From Hydrogenophilales bacterium 16-64-40 (GTDB lineage: Bacteria > Pseudomonadota > Gammaproteobacteria > Burkholderiales > Thiobacillaceae): 64,000 nt of DNA. This document shows, in pieces, positions 40,575 to 45,205 of the stretch. Each line of letters begins with the position of its first letter. Within the stretch, counting starts at the first letter, position 1. Made by a program: the position numbers and the translations under genes. The stretch covers positions 117,785-181,784 of the forward strand of contig NCGX01000001.1 of NCBI GenBank assembly GCA_002256995.1, written 5' to 3'. Under the pieces are notes generated by a model. It was not told where the DNA came from and ran no database searches. It saw only the letters and a program-made list of their open reading frames with translations.

Positions 40575-40648
40575 GCGGGCGTCGTATAGTGGCATTACCT
40601 GAGCTTCCCAAGCTCATGAGGAGGGTTCGATTCCCTTCGCCCGCTCCA
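40575..40648 (+). tRNA. tRNA-Gly, anticodon CCC
   Basis: The acceptor arm GCGGGCG (40575-40581) pairs with CGCCCGC (40638-40644), followed by discriminator T and encoded CCA (40646-40648). The anticodon stem TGAGC/GCTCA encloses TTCCCAA, anticodon CCC at the centre. The T arm is GAGGG-TTCGATT-CCCTT. All parts are in place, so it is a functional tRNA-Gly(CCC). It is divergent from thiS, with the DUF1631 genes downstream. Confidence 0.95.
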
Positions 40649-40726: not shown

Positions 40727-42760
40727 ATGAATACCCAATCGACTCCCCCGACGCCTGCTGCGCTGCTGTCTGAAGCCGATGCACGCATGGCGCAGGCGCT
40801 GGACAATTTTTTCCAGCGCAGCCATGCCCCGCTTCAGGGCAGCGTCTTGCGCGCCATTGCGCCGCAGATGACGTCTGTGGTCATCGCAACCGGGCAGACT
40901 TGTCTGGACTGGCTCAATAGCCGTCCGGACGTCTTGTCCGCTGCGTTTGCCGACCAATTCCGGCTTCACCTCGCCCGGCCCGAGACGTTTACCCTCCGCA
41001 ATGACAGCCGCCCGGCCGAACTGCAACTACTGGATGACGACGCGCTCAAGCGGCAACTGGCAGAAGAAAAAGTCGCCACCCAGCTGACCGAAGTCCTGCG
41101 GGCCGACATGTTGCTGCTGTTCGGCCGTTTGCAAGCGGTGCGGCGGGCGGCGTTGGACAATCCAGCAGACCATACCAAAACCTATGGCCCGCTGCCGGTC
41201 ATTCGCGCGCTGTCGCGCGCGCTCGATGCGCTGGGTATCGACTCGCGGTGCGGCACCCTCCTGCTCCAGTGTGTCGGCGCCCCCCTGCTCGACACGCTGA
41301 AGTACACCTACACGGCGCTCTACCAGTTTCTGGGCGCGCAGAACGTCCCTGAGCTCCCTCTAGCACACGCTGCCCCCCTGACCCGGCGCACGCCAAGCGA
41401 TGCCGGACAGGCCATCCTCAAACATATCCAGTCGGTGGCCACCCAAGCGAACGAAACCGGCTCGGCAGGCACAAGCGCGGCAACGGGCGGGCTCACGCCC
41501 GTGCCGAGCCGCCTGATCGACAGCCTGGCAGGCTGGCAAAACCGCCTGCTGGTCGCACCGTCAGACGCGCCCGCGCACATCCTGCAGCAATTGCAGCGGG
41601 GTGATCATTCCGGCACCGATGCACATGACCTCGCCGTGCTGGATGCCGTCGCCGGTCTGTTCGAATTCATTCTCGACGATCCGGGACTGTCGCCGCGTTA
41701 CAGGACCGCAGTCGCGCAGCTGCAAATCCCGGCCCTCCGGGACGCCCTGGTTGCGCCCGACTTTTTCAGCGCCGAGCAGCACCCGGCACGCCAGTTGATT
41801 GATCTGATGGGCCTGCTCTCGCGCCGCTTTCCGGAGCACGACGCCTCGCACGTCCATGCGCTCGAGCACATCGAGGCGGCCTGCGCCGCCCTCCACCACG
41901 ATCCCGGGCATCCCGCCGAGGCCTTTGCGCGGGCGCACGACAGCCTGGCCGCCTGGCTGGCCGACGAAGCGGCACGTCCTGACCCCGGGCTGGCTTCTGA
42001 AGTGGCGCGGATGGAGCACATCGAACGCCAGGAACTGGGCACCCTGCTCGCGCTGGAAAACCTGCAGGACCTGACCGAACGCTACCCTGCCCCGGAATCC
42101 GTTTTGCGGCGACTGGAAGCGGCCTGGGTGCCGCACATGGCTTCGCTGTATGTGGCCGAATCCGGCGAGGGCCCTGACTGGCGCACGGCCTGCCACACCC
42201 TGCAACAGCTTTTTCTCAGCCTGCAGACACCGGACAGCGACGCGACGCGGGAATCCCGCCTGCAATCGATACCGTCCATCAACGCCGCGCTGCGGCGCGG
42301 ACTGCTGGCGCAAGGGGCCGAACCTGCACAGCTGAAAGATTTTTTCGGCGCCGTCACCGCCACCCAGGAAAACTGGATTCGCCCCGCCCTCGGTCAACGC
42401 GAAAGAATGATCAGCTCATTCACGCCGCGCCGCGTCTCGGAGCAGATCGAGTCGCTGGCCCCCCAATTTACGGATACCCCGGGCAATGATTCTGCCCTAC
42501 AACAGGCACTGCAGTTGCGCGAAGGCGACTGGATCGATTTCGACCCTGCCTACGAGGGCCTGACGGCCGCACGCGCGCTCTGGGTGGGGGTGAATGGCCA
42601 CCTGCTGTTCTGCGACAGCGCTGGCGGGCGCCCTGTTGCGCTCGGCTGCGAACAGATCGCGGCTGAAATGCGTGCTGGCCGCGCGCGCATCCCGGAGCAG
42701 TCGCTGACTCGCAAAGCCATGCTGCGCCTCAAAGAAAACCTGCCGGCCAGCCCGCGCTGA
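40727..42760 (+). CDS. DUF1631 family protein (first of two)
   Basis: A 677-aa soluble, mainly helical protein of unknown function. Family-like segments are LDNFFQRSHAPLQGSVLRA (N-terminal region), LAVLDAVAGLFEFILDDP (about 305-325), LQIPALRDALVAPDFFS and RQLIDLMGLLSRRFPEHD. A C-terminal module (about 590-670: LREGDWIDFDPAYEG, ALWVGVNGHLLFCDSAGG) is shared with the next gene and recalls a small beta-barrel, but no RxxxR PilZ motif is visible. Old annotations call this family thymidine phosphorylase, which I do not support. It shares no riboswitch with its neighbour. Confidence 0.88.
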   Translation: MNTQSTPPTPAALLSEADARMAQALDNFFQRSHAPLQGSVLRAIAPQMTSVVIATGQTCLDWLNSRPDVLSAAFADQFRLHLARPETFTLRNDSRPAELQLLDDDALKRQLAEEKVATQLTEVLRADMLLLFGRLQAVRRAALDNPADHTKTYGPLPVIRALSRALDALGIDSRCGTLLLQCVGAPLLDTLKYTYTALYQFLGAQNVPELPLAHAAPLTRRTPSDAGQAILKHIQSVATQANETGSAGTSAATGGLTPVPSRLIDSLAGWQNRLLVAPSDAPAHILQQLQRGDHSGTDAHDLAVLDAVAGLFEFILDDPGLSPRYRTAVAQLQIPALRDALVAPDFFSAEQHPARQLIDLMGLLSRRFPEHDASHVHALEHIEAACAALHHDPGHPAEAFARAHDSLAAWLADEAARPDPGLASEVARMEHIERQELGTLLALENLQDLTERYPAPESVLRRLEAAWVPHMASLYVAESGEGPDWRTACHTLQQLFLSLQTPDSDATRESRLQSIPSINAALRRGLLAQGAEPAQLKDFFGAVTATQENWIRPALGQRERMISSFTPRRVSEQIESLAPQFTDTPGNDSALQQALQLREGDWIDFDPAYEGLTAARALWVGVNGHLLFCDSAGGRPVALGCEQIAAEMRAGRARIPEQSLTRKAMLRLKENLPASPR

Positions 42761-42778
42761 TTTTTGCAGGTTGCACGC

Positions 42779-42805
42779 TCAAGTTTCGCTCACCTCGGCC
42801 GATAG
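42779..42805 (+). promoter_or_regulatory. predicted sigma-28 (FliA) promoter
   Basis: TCAAGTTT (42779-42786) and GCCGATAG (42798-42805) are separated by exactly 11 bases. The enterobacterial FliA consensus is TAAAGTTT-N11-GCCGATAA; each half has one mismatch. Transcription would start near 42811-42813, about 30 bases before the c-di-GMP riboswitch and about 200 bases before the second DUF1631 gene. FliA transcribes late flagellar and chemotaxis genes. The match is by pattern only. Confidence 0.75.
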
Positions 42806-42840
42806 ATCAGTTGTACGGTTGTGTGTCGAGTTTCAGACAC

Positions 42841-42946
42841 GATCGCCGACCATCGAACAGGGCAAACCCGCCGCGAGGCGGGGACGCAAAGTTACCGGTC
42901 TCAGTCCCCGCAGCAGCGTGGCCGAGACAGCGGGGCCGCCGGCACC
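42841..42946 (+). promoter_or_regulatory. cyclic di-GMP-I (GEMM-I) riboswitch
   Basis: Conserved core elements appear in the right order: GGGCAAACC (42860-42868); a six-pair hairpin CCCGCC-GCGA-GGCGGG (42867-42882) with a GNRA loop; GACGCAAAG (42883-42891), the tetraloop-receptor strand; a stem GTCTC (42898-42902) with GAGAC (42924-42928); and AGCGGGG (42929-42935). A short closing stem GCCG (42845-42848)/CGGC (42940-42943) completes it. These are the landmarks of the GEMM-I class that binds c-di-GMP. I see no obvious terminator in the 66 bases before the start codon, so the output may be at translation. Confidence 0.88.
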
Positions 42947-43012
42947 ATTCCGGACACGCGCAAGTCATCCCTTTTCAGGTCAGCCAACCGCCGATACCGC
43001 GAGGTGATCCAA

Positions 43013-45205
43013 ATGGAGCGCGAAATGCCAGAAAACTCTGTCGTAGTTAACCTCAATCAATTTGAGCGTACGCGCCGCGCGCAGGTCTCCGCCGAGACCC
43101 TGTCGATCCTGCACGGCTGCCGCGACCTGCTGATCGAAGGCGCGACCCGCGTGCTGACGCGGCAGTCCGAGGCGATGGAAAACACCCTGCTGGCGATGGC
43201 CGACCGTTCGCCGCTGCTGGAGACGCGCAATTCGTATTACAGCGCCCAGGGCATCCTCAATACGCGGACCAATGAATTGCTGAGCGCGTGCAAGGATGCG
43301 TATTGCCAGACTTTCAACGATTTTTCCCACAACCGCGAAAAGCCCGCCGGCGGTGAACTGCTCGAGTTGTCCCTGCTGGACGACCAGGATTTCGAAATCA
43401 CGCTGGTGATCGACAAAGCCACCTCGCGGTTGCGTTACAACTGCGCCGAAGAGCTGGTCGCCCTGGATGCCCGCATCGCCCACCTGCTGGGCCGCTCCGA
43501 CCTGTCCGAAAACGACAGTCCGCTCGGCCCGCGTGTCCTGTGCGAAGCGCTGCTGGATGGCATCAGCCGCATGCAGATTGAACAGAACGTACGGATCGTG
43601 CTGTTGAACCAGTTCGATCTGGTGCTGACCACCGAACTTGCCCACATCTACCAATCCATCAACCGCTTCCTGATCGACCGTGGCATCCTGACCGATCTCA
43701 AGGTCGGCGCAAAAAGCCGGGCGCAAGGCACAACCCCTAACAGCGCCGGGACAGCCGGTCCGGCCCCGGCCATGCAAGGGCAGACGGGTGGCGACATGTT
43801 CAAGCTGTTCGAGCAGCTGGCGCACAGCGGTAGCACAGCGGGAGGGACGGGGGGGGCGCCCGCGGGTCTGGCCGGATTCAGCCTGCTCGACTCGCTCGGC
43901 CAGCTGCAATCCGGCGCCATGATGCTGCCCGGCGGCGGCCGCTTCGTACTGCCCCTGCTGGAAGCCGCCACGATCCAGAACGTGTTGCGCAGCCTGCAGC
44001 AAAGCCCGGTGATGCAATCGGCAAGCCCGCTCGACGCGGTGCTGGTCGATGCGGTGGCGATGCTGTTCGACGTGGTGTTCGAAGACGCGGCCATCCCGGA
44101 TCATCTCAAGACGCAAATCGCGCGCCTGCAGATTCCGGTGCTGAAGGCGGCGATGCTCGACCGCAACTTCTTCTCGCAATCGAACCATCCGGTTCGCCGC
44201 ATGCTGGATGCGATCGCCACGCTGGCCGTCCACCTGCCCGACAACGAGGCCGGCAATGCGCGGCTGGAAGCCATTTCGCAAGTGGTCAGCCGGGTGCTCG
44301 ACAGCTTCGAAAAGGACATCACCGTATTCGACTCCGCTGCCGTAGAGCTGGAAGCGATGGGCAGTCAGCTCGAAGAAACGCTGGAAGAAATCGTCGATGC
44401 CAGTCTGCAGCAGGACATCGCCCAGATCAGGCAGTCCGAACGCGCAGAGCTCGCGCCGGTGATCGTGCACGACTTCATCAATCGCGCGCTCAAGGAGCAG
44501 CCGGTGGTGGACGCCCTGCGCGAGTTTTTGCGGCGCGATTGGGCCCAGCTGCTGACCCTGGATTACGTCAACGAAGGCGAGCAGGGCGCGCATTTCAACA
44601 GCCATGTCGAAACCATGCGCGAACTGGTATGGAGCGTGCAGCCCAAGGCTGACATGGACGCACGGCTGATGCTGGTGCGCATCCTGCCCGGACTGCTGAA
44701 ACGGCTGCGCGAAGGGGTGGCCGAAATCGATCTGCCGCAAAAGCTGTCCGACCGCTTCTTCGCCACGCTGGTCATTCTGCACGCCAATGCGGTGCGTCCC
44801 AACGCCCAGCCGGTGCCGCTGCCCGACATCACGCCCGAGGAAATCGAGGAACTGACGCCCGCCCCGGCAGCTGCCGAGGCCGCCATGTCAGCGCCGGAAC
44901 CCGAAGCACCCGGTGTGGACGATGAGTTCGCGCTGCGCGCCCGCGCCTTGAGCAAGGGCGACTGGGTTGAATTCCACTACGACGACGGCACCTTCCGCTG
45001 GGCACGGCTGGGTTGGGCCAGCACCATCAAGAACACCTATTTGTTCTCGGACCAGGACGGCATGAACAGCTTTTCCATCAGCCAGCTCCGCCTGGCCGAC
45101 AAGCTTCGCCGTGGCGAAGCGGTGCTGGTCGAACGCAAATCCATCACCGAATCGGCGTTCGGCAAGCTGATGAACCTGTTCCGCCAGAAACTCGGCCACG
45201 CCTGA
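43013..45205 (+). CDS. DUF1631 family protein (second), riboswitch-controlled
   Basis: A 730-aa protein, homologous along its length to the preceding one (LIEGATRVLTRQSEAMENTLLA, LVDAVAMLFDVVFEDAAIPD, LQIPVLKAAMLDRNFFSQ, HPVRRMLDAIATLAVHLPDN). A low-complexity Gly/Ala linker lies near 240-290. The C-terminal module (about 645-725) has LSKGDWVEFHYDDGTFRWARL and TYLFSDQDGMNSFSISQL; I see neither RxxxR nor (D/N)xSxxG, so direct c-di-GMP binding is not supported. The ATG at 43013 follows GAGGTGATCC. Leader elements imply control by flagellar sigma-28 and c-di-GMP. ATG 43025 is an alternative start. Confidence 0.88.
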   Translation: MEREMPENSVVVNLNQFERTRRAQVSAETLSILHGCRDLLIEGATRVLTRQSEAMENTLLAMADRSPLLETRNSYYSAQGILNTRTNELLSACKDAYCQTFNDFSHNREKPAGGELLELSLLDDQDFEITLVIDKATSRLRYNCAEELVALDARIAHLLGRSDLSENDSPLGPRVLCEALLDGISRMQIEQNVRIVLLNQFDLVLTTELAHIYQSINRFLIDRGILTDLKVGAKSRAQGTTPNSAGTAGPAPAMQGQTGGDMFKLFEQLAHSGSTAGGTGGAPAGLAGFSLLDSLGQLQSGAMMLPGGGRFVLPLLEAATIQNVLRSLQQSPVMQSASPLDAVLVDAVAMLFDVVFEDAAIPDHLKTQIARLQIPVLKAAMLDRNFFSQSNHPVRRMLDAIATLAVHLPDNEAGNARLEAISQVVSRVLDSFEKDITVFDSAAVELEAMGSQLEETLEEIVDASLQQDIAQIRQSERAELAPVIVHDFINRALKEQPVVDALREFLRRDWAQLLTLDYVNEGEQGAHFNSHVETMRELVWSVQPKADMDARLMLVRILPGLLKRLREGVAEIDLPQKLSDRFFATLVILHANAVRPNAQPVPLPDITPEEIEELTPAPAAAEAAMSAPEPEAPGVDDEFALRARALSKGDWVEFHYDDGTFRWARLGWASTIKNTYLFSDQDGMNSFSISQLRLADKLRRGEAVLVERKSITESAFGKLMNLFRQKLGHA

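What the first reader, a model, noticed from the sequence alone, without database searches (positions are those of the whole stretch)
42779..43012. A sigma-28 promoter and a c-di-GMP-I riboswitch in series control an uncharacterised DUF1631 gene
The leader of the second DUF1631 gene contains TCAAGTTT-N11-GCCGATAG, one mismatch per half from the FliA consensus. About 35 bases on lies the GEMM-I core: GGGCAAACC, a GCGA-capped six-pair hairpin, GACGCAAAG, a GTCTC/GAGAC stem and AGCGGGG. Sigma-28 directs late flagellar genes, and GEMM-I senses c-di-GMP, the motile-to-sessile signal. Having both ahead of one gene links this unknown protein to the motility/biofilm switch. Promoter and aptamer are seen as patterns; the functional link is inference.
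Basis: partly seen in the sequence, partly recalled or inferred. Interest (0 to 1): 0.88.

Follow-up and report, generated by a model that had tools for sequence, protein, structure and literature searches.

The report
Flagellar promoter plus c-di-GMP riboswitch
In sulfur bacteria of the genus Thiobacillus, a gene of unknown function is preceded by a flagellum-type promoter followed by an RNA switch for the signal molecule c-di-GMP; most of the relatives compared keep both, which ties the unknown protein to the choice between swimming and settling.

Summary
A c-di-GMP-I (GEMM-I) aptamer lies at 42852-42944 and a sigma-28-type promoter at 42779-42805 (consensus with up to 3 mismatches: 1 match in the window, 0.04 expected). 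Both precede a DUF1631 gene at 43013-45205 in a Thiobacillus genome. Comparison gives most of the support. In 34 aligned leaders the -35 core T[AC]AAGT is present in 34 and CCGATA in 25, while the spacer is 38% identical. GEMM-I passes Rfam's cut-off in 32 of 34. Three other families of the order have GEMM-I before DUF1631 without a visible sigma-28 site, so the promoter may be the later addition. G20 and A47 point to c-di-GMP, although Rfam's best label is the 'GGC' variant. Two points limit the functional reading. The genus mostly has two FliA paralogues, and its main flagellins use a different promoter sequence, so membership of the flagellin regulon is not shown. Switch direction is unresolved; I favour translational OFF (about 0.6). 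What DUF1631 does is unknown.

The parts
42779..42786 (+). -35 element TCAAGTTT of a sigma-28-type promoter
   Evidence: T[AC]AAGT in 34 of 34 aligned leaders
42798..42805 (+). -10 element GCCGATAG; transcription start inferred near 42812
   Evidence: CCGATA in 25 of 34, CGATA in 26 of 34 aligned leaders. The start site is inference.
42813..42850 (+).
   Evidence: Mean folding z -2.7, 41 of 42 non-identical leaders below -1; arms pair better in their own leader than when exchanged (0 of 5000 permutations as good). In the window itself z is only -1.1.
42852..42944 (+). c-di-GMP-I (GEMM-I) riboswitch aptamer
   Evidence: RF03167 61.0 bits; RF01051 56.8 bits, E 2.1e-10
42867..42882 (+). P2 hairpin with GCGA tetraloop
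42898..42928 (+). P3 helix GTCTC/GAGAC with variable loop
   Evidence: arms covary in the genus (0 of 5000 permutations as good)
42945..43012 (+). Expression platform with Shine-Dalgarno GAGGTGATC; no intrinsic terminator found
   Evidence: competing helices tested, unresolved
43013..45205 (+). Regulated gene: DUF1631 protein, 730 aa
   Evidence: PF07793 561.9 bits, E 3.3e-168
40727..42760 (+). Upstream DUF1631 paralogue, 677 aa, not part of the switch
   Evidence: PF07793 217.9 bits; in 8 of 33 named loci no paralogue is matched and a tRNA is the feature found upstream of the leader

Best explanation
The leader is a two-step gate. Step 1 (strongly suggested by sequence and conservation): RNA polymerase with a FliA-type sigma factor transcribes the DUF1631 gene from 42779-42805, starting near 42812. 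Step 2 (aptamer shown by covariance model; ligand inferred from G20 and A47): the nascent RNA folds a 5' hairpin, perhaps protective (inference), and then a canonical c-di-GMP-I aptamer that binds c-di-GMP. Step 3 (inferred, about 0.6): ligand binding fixes the short P1 helix, prevents its 3' strand from forming an adjacent small hairpin, and lets downstream sequence cover the Shine-Dalgarno, so that high c-di-GMP stops translation. DUF1631 would then be made only when the sigma-28 programme is on and c-di-GMP is low, that is in motile cells. The DUF1631 protein is probably a cytoplasmic helical adaptor with a C-terminal small beta domain that acts in that motile state (inference).
For: Aptamer. 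Promoter. Across 34 leaders the -35 region is 91% identical, the spacer 38%, the -10 77%, the aptamer core 91%, the sequence upstream of the promoter 45%. GEMM-I over Rfam's cut-off in 31 of 33 named loci plus the window. 5' hairpin. FliA in the genome. No sigma-70-like site and no intrinsic terminator found in 42600-43100, which points to control of translation. A like site lies 45-46 bases before a response regulator-HD-domain (HD-GYP-like) gene in 5 of 6 genomes examined (domains tested in one). OFF tilt: predicted Shine-Dalgarno exposure lower with P1 forced in 13, higher in 2, alike in 23 of 38 leaders. By analogy, Vibrio Vc2 is a translational OFF switch (PMC7371385, passages).
Against: Against OFF: the proposed anti-Shine-Dalgarno helix does not covary convincingly (3529 of 5000 permutations as good; 497 of 5000 with tighter segments), the P1-competing hairpin is borderline (171 of 5000), the local Shine-Dalgarno hairpin is negative (3345 of 5000), and two control pairings scored 317 and 1258 of 5000; in the window itself exposure is not lower with P1 forced (0.32 against 0.27). 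Against a simple FliA reading: the main flagellins use another motif; the loose motif AAGTT-N11..14-CCGATA is not clearly enriched over its reversed control (26 against 21 in six genomes); 8 of 34 leaders lack CGATA (L047, L048, L052, L056, L060, L061, L062, L066), and scores of 12 are reached by shuffled leaders too (maximum of 20 shuffles 10-12, once 14). Genomes with only B-type FliA have weaker sites (12-13 of 16), while the three with only the A type keep 13-14 of 16, among them G030, rated 100% complete.
Confidence: 0.72

Rival explanations
1. Same promoter and aptamer, but the switch is ON: c-di-GMP binding frees the Shine-Dalgarno, so that DUF1631 is made when c-di-GMP rises while FliA is still active, as a brief transition protein.
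For: No conserved sequestering helix could be proven; 23 of 38 leaders show no predicted difference and 2 favour ON. Riboswitches with highly similar aptamers can have either sign: Cd1 OFF, the cGAMP-sensing pilM ON (PMC9262584, passages).
Against: Where a difference is predicted, 13 of 15 point to OFF.
Confidence: 0.3
2. The promoter belongs to a second sigma-28 regulon read by the B-type FliA and separate from the flagellin regulon read by the A-type FliA; DUF1631 then marks a c-di-GMP/chemotaxis regulon and not late flagellar assembly.
For: Two FliA clades with full support among the sampled Thiobacillus proteins. 10 of 10 Thiobacillus main-type flagellin leaders with enough upstream sequence have TTAACTTT-N11-GACGATTC, while the one other Thiobacillus flagellin (G002) scores 15 of 16 and 11 of 15 scored flagellins of other families score 13 or more of 16 against TAAAGTTT/GCCGATAA (no shuffle control). 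DUF1631 and the HD-domain gene have the latter type.
Against: Three genomes with only the A type found (G021, G022, G030) keep the site; B-only genomes have weaker sites.
Confidence: 0.35
3. The promoter-like motif is a chance or relict match; DUF1631 is transcribed by read-through from the upstream gene and only the riboswitch matters.
For: The upstream paralogue ends 18 bases before the -35 element. In three other families GEMM-I precedes DUF1631 without a visible sigma-28-like site.
Against: Conservation of -35 and -10 against an unconserved spacer; 8 of 33 named loci have no matched upstream paralogue and still score 12-15 of 16; L045 and L048 keep the site although no aptamer is matched.
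Confidence: 0.06
4. The aptamer senses another cyclic dinucleotide (cGAMP or an unknown ligand of the 'GGC' variant class).
For: Rfam's best label is c-di-GMP-I-GGC.
Against: The window reads GACGCAAAG where the GGC model consensus reads GACGCGAAG, and has G at the position equivalent to Vc2 G20 (numbering recalled).
Confidence: 0.07

Closest known systems
Vc2 GEMM-I riboswitch upstream of tfoY, Vibrio cholerae (PMC7371385, passages read)
   Same: c-di-GMP riboswitch in the 5' leader of a motility-related gene; translation restricted when c-di-GMP is bound; several regulatory layers on one gene
   Different: Promoters there are not described as sigma-28 in the passages read; the regulated gene has TfoX-like domains; no 5' hairpin is mentioned in those passages
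Cd1 GEMM-I riboswitch before the flgB operon, Clostridioides difficile (PMC5386303, passages read)
   Same: GEMM-I linked to the flagellar sigma factor
   Different: Order reversed: a sigma-A promoter and the riboswitch control the operon that encodes SigD; premature transcription termination, not translation
FliA regulon and merRNA of Bdellovibrio bacteriovorus (PMC3627812, passages read)
   Same: FliA used beyond flagella, together with a c-di-GMP riboswitch RNA in the motile phase
   Different: merRNA has no conserved downstream gene and carries no FliA mark in that paper's Table 2
bifA of Pseudomonas putida, FliA-dependent phosphodiesterase gene (PMC5300878, abstract read)
   Same: FliA promoter ahead of a c-di-GMP-related gene
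   Different: No riboswitch is mentioned in the abstract; parallels the HD-domain gene noticed here, not DUF1631

Membership tests
c-di-GMP-I (GEMM-I) riboswitch, RF01051 | Covariance model score above the curated cut-off | tested here: met
   56.8 bits against 35, E 2.1e-10
c-di-GMP-I (GEMM-I) riboswitch, RF01051 | Ligand-contacting G20 and A47 (Vc2 numbering, recalled) | tested here: met
   Read from the sequence: AGGGCAAACC and GACGCAAAG. The third contact, C92, was not assigned.
c-di-GMP-I (GEMM-I) riboswitch, RF01051 | Binds c-di-GMP and changes expression of the gene | not testable with these tools
   Needs probing and reporter assays
c-di-GMP-I-GGC, RF03167 | Covariance model score above the curated cut-off | tested here: met
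   61.0 bits against 59
c-di-GMP-I-GGC, RF03167 | G in place of the first A of GACGCAAAG, as in the model consensus (that this defines the variant is recalled) | tested here: not met
   Window has A (alignment), so it is not filed as this variant
Sigma-28 (FliA) promoter | TAAAGTTT-N11-GCCGATAA type sequence with correct spacing | tested here: met
   14 of 16, N11; 0.04 expected in the window at up to 3 mismatches
Sigma-28 (FliA) promoter | Conserved at the same place in relatives | tested here: met
   12-16 of 16 in 34 of 34 aligned leaders, though 9 of 34 lack CCGATA
Sigma-28 (FliA) promoter | FliA encoded in the genome | tested here: met
   Two matches over the TIGR02479 cut-off
Sigma-28 (FliA) promoter | FliA-dependent transcription from a start a few bases downstream | not testable with these tools
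   Needs 5' end mapping and a fliA mutant
DUF1631, PF07793 | Pfam score above the curated cut-off | tested here: met
   561.9 bits against 33.7
PacR, NCBIfam NF058594 | Score above the curated cut-off of 1200 bits | tested here: not met
   143.9 bits: at most a distant relative

The most novel reading that the evidence does not exclude
Thiobacillus carries two flagellar-type sigma factors with different promoter codes: one for flagellin (TTAACTTT/GACGATTC), one for a lifestyle regulon (TAAAGTTT/GCCGATAA) that includes a phosphodiesterase-like HD-domain gene and, through riboswitch-bearing leaders, DUF1631 and a subtilase. Sigma factor choice and second-messenger sensing would be wired in series on the same RNAs, with a dedicated 5' hairpin as a third part of the device.
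Probability: 0.28. Interest if true: 0.72.

Novelty: new variant of a known kind. Interest (0 to 1): 0.55.

Why it matters
I found no described function for DUF1631: a full-text search gave three papers that mention it, and the passages read in two only list it. Two conserved, independently testable regulatory inputs give the protein a defined physiological window (sigma-28 active, c-di-GMP sensed) and thus a first assayable hypothesis. A promoter of the flagellar sigma factor in series with a c-di-GMP riboswitch would be a compact logic gate between motile and sessile life. It was rare in my class-wide sample of GEMM-I loci (1 of 22 that could be read, out of 29 examined).

Tried and rejected
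Switch sign: I tested a P1-competing hairpin (171 of 5000 permutations as good), an anti-Shine-Dalgarno helix (3529 of 5000, where one leader, L061, was cut at the wrong place; 497 of 5000) and a local Shine-Dalgarno hairpin (3345 of 5000). None is convincing beside P3 and the 5' hairpin (0 of 5000 each). The permutation tests treat related leaders as independent. RNAalifold on the whole leader did not recover the known aptamer helices together and was not used.

Literature: 'PacR' searches (25 of 184 papers listed) listed no title that I could tie to this family. Searches around riboswitch, FliA, sigma 28 and c-di-GMP (20 of 84 papers listed; 6; 9; 30 of 38 listed) listed no title describing a sigma-28 promoter ahead of a GEMM-I riboswitch. 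I read passages or an abstract of only a few of them, and subscription journals are mostly not held. Searches added nothing usable.

Motif pattern alone: the loose motif is not clearly enriched (26 against 21 in the control), so I relied on conservation. Only 16 of those 26 sites were read in context, because the script read one strand. Regex location of the aptamer missed 5 of 32 loci and 7 of 29; these are left out of the counts. The leader of G030 (L169) was fetched with a wrong offset and is cut inside the aptamer.

Full report
WHAT IS THERE. The window lies in contig C59 of a 3.10-Mb genome. A search of named genomes gave 34 loci with the DUF1631 gene, best-segment identity 50-94%; 18 of the 34 records are titled Thiobacillus, among them T. 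denitrificans RG and T. thioparus DSM 505, the rest mostly Hydrogenophilales or less precisely named bins. Rfam at its cut-offs finds two RNAs in the window: a tRNA at 40575-40645 and a c-di-GMP-I-type riboswitch at 42852-42944. Upstream, TCAAGTTT-N11-GCCGATAG sits at 42779-42805. The consensus TAAAGTTT-N11-GCCGATAA with up to three mismatches occurs once in the window, here, with 0.04 expected; 4 of 100 shuffles had a match. A strict form, TMAAGTT-N11..14-CCGATA, occurs three times in the genome against one for the reversed control: here, upstream of a response regulator-HD-domain gene, and within coding frames. The gene behind the leader encodes 730 aa of DUF1631.

CONSERVATION. Of the 34 named loci one, L063, is cut before the leader and was dropped; 33 plus the window were aligned. 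At the aligned place the site scores 12 to 16 of 16 in 34 of 34; T[AC]AAGT is in 34, CCGATA in 25, CGATA in 26. Mean pairwise identity is 0.91 for the -35 region, 0.38 for the spacer, 0.77 for the -10, 0.64 for the hairpin region, 0.91 for the aptamer core and 0.45 for sequence upstream of the promoter. GEMM-I passes Rfam's cut-off in 31 of 33 named loci and in the window. L045 and L048 have no GEMM-I match up to E 1, though aptamer remnants can be seen, yet keep a site of 13 of 16 each. A second set of 32 leaders from unnamed same-genus genomes gives the same picture: the best site is 80-83 bases before GGCAAACC in 29 of 32; two (G011, G015) lack the aptamer core and one (G029) has its best match elsewhere. 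Equal contig lengths show that the two sets share genomes, so they must not be added. Shuffled leaders reach 10-12 of 16, once 14, so the lowest scores count only through their position.

A THIRD ELEMENT. Between promoter and aptamer lies a hairpin (42813-42850 in the window). Over 42 non-identical leaders from both sets its mean folding z-score is -2.7, with 41 below -1, and its arms pair better with their own partner than with exchanged ones (mean -17.2 against -14.1 kcal/mol; 0 of 5000 permutations as good). The known aptamer helix P3 behaves the same way (0 of 5000). The window's own hairpin is ordinary (z -1.1), so the evidence is comparative, and the test treats related leaders as independent. 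That the structure begins about where a sigma-28 transcript would start fits the promoter assignment (inference).

LIGAND. The best Rfam label is the 'GGC' variant, by 61.0 bits against 56.8 for the ordinary family, and the label differs between close orthologues. The window has GACGCAAAG where the variant's consensus has GACGCGAAG, and G at the position equivalent to Vc2 G20 (numbering recalled). I therefore read it as an ordinary c-di-GMP sensor.

EVOLUTION. In three genomes of other families of the order (G045, G048, G057), GEMM-I also lies directly before a DUF1631 gene that is 33-34% identical to the window's. No sigma-28-like site is seen there: best scores 9 and 11 of 16 for G045 and G048, none by eye for G057. 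G045 and G057 have no FliA at E <= 1e-50; G048 has one. The riboswitch-gene pairing is thus wider than the promoter. In a class-wide sample 66 of 377 genomes had GEMM-I. Of 29 loci fetched from it, which are the best-scoring ones, 22 could be read and 1 (L212) had a sigma-28-like site of 13 of 16 that none of 50 shuffles reached; the others scored 8-11. Within Thiobacillus a second GEMM-I family, nine loci, precedes a gene whose product is a subtilase where tested (L011). CT[AC]AAG is present in all nine, with a CGTCGTTACTG-like box before the aptamer; at 10-13 of 16 it is only a lead.

TWO SIGMA-28 FACTORS. Of 35 same-genus relatives, 26 have two FliA matches at E <= 1e-50, 8 have one and 1 (75% complete) has none. 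The 22 sampled Thiobacillus FliA proteins form two clades with full support, 55-59% identical to each other's reference. Main-type Thiobacillus flagellins have TTAACTTT-N11-GACGATTC (L107-L114; 10 of 10 with enough upstream sequence, overlapping sets; two further loci could not be scored). The one other Thiobacillus flagellin (G002) scores 15 of 16 against TAAAGTTT/GCCGATAA, and 11 of 15 scored flagellins from other families score 13 or more (without shuffle control). The DUF1631 site is of the second type, as is a site 45-46 bases before an HD-domain response regulator gene in five of six genomes. This suggests, but does not show, that DUF1631 is outside the main flagellin regulon. Against a clean division of labour: three genomes in which only the A type was found (G021, G022, G030; 79, 75 and 100% complete) keep sites of 13-14 of 16, and the five with only the B type have weaker ones, 12-13.

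HOW IT MAY SWITCH. No intrinsic terminator or sigma-70-like promoter is found at 42600-43100, so I favour control of translation. The 3' strand of P1 can pair with a small downstream hairpin, and a downstream segment can pair with the Shine-Dalgarno. With P1 forced, predicted Shine-Dalgarno exposure falls in 13, rises in 2 and is alike in 23 of 38 leaders, the window among the last. Permutation tests do not confirm these helices. I give OFF about 0.6.

THE PROTEIN. The model is mostly helical with a C-terminal small beta domain; confidence is modest and fold matches are weak. NCBIfam's closest name is PacR, far below its cut-off (143.9 against 1200 bits). The reading as a motile-phase adaptor is inference.

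PRECEDENTS. Vc2/tfoY (PMC7371385), Cd1/flgB (PMC5386303), the Bdellovibrio FliA regulon with merRNA (PMC3627812) and FliA-driven bifA (PMC5300878) each share one part (passages or abstract only). My searches (two of them with capped lists) listed no title describing a sigma-28 promoter ahead of a GEMM-I riboswitch.

Noticed in passing
G000 C33:23657-23760 (L001): Second GEMM-I riboswitch of the genome (59.2 bits), ahead of a DUF1540 protein and further small genes; best sigma-28-like score only 10 of 16.
   Followed up: partly
L010-L013, L016, L022, L023, L027, L030: Second GEMM-I family in Thiobacillus ahead of a gene that is a subtilase (Peptidase_S8) where tested in L011; a conserved CT[AC]AAG and a CGTCGTTACTG-like box end close to the aptamer and may be another sigma-28-riboswitch tandem.
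   Followed up: partly
L107-L114 and Thiobacillus loci: Main-type Thiobacillus flagellins share TTAACTTT-N11-GACGATTC and a conserved leader, unlike flagellin promoters of related families.
   Followed up: partly
L077/L091 (G000 C23), L094, L098, L100, L105: Sigma-28-like site 45-46 bases before a response regulator-HD-domain gene in five of six genomes; Pfam tested in L077 only.
   Followed up: partly
L082 (G024 C1:1411034): Sigma-28-like site 109 bases before a PAS-containing chemotaxis receptor gene.
   Followed up: no
G015, G029: Genomes rated 97% complete with B-type FliA but no flagellin match.
   Followed up: no
L045, L048, L151, L155: Promoter-like site kept (13-14 of 16) while no GEMM-I is matched.
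   Followed up: partly
window 40575-40645 and 40727-42760: tRNA followed by a divergent DUF1631 paralogue; in 8 of 33 named loci no paralogue is matched and a tRNA lies upstream of the riboswitch leader.
   Followed up: partly
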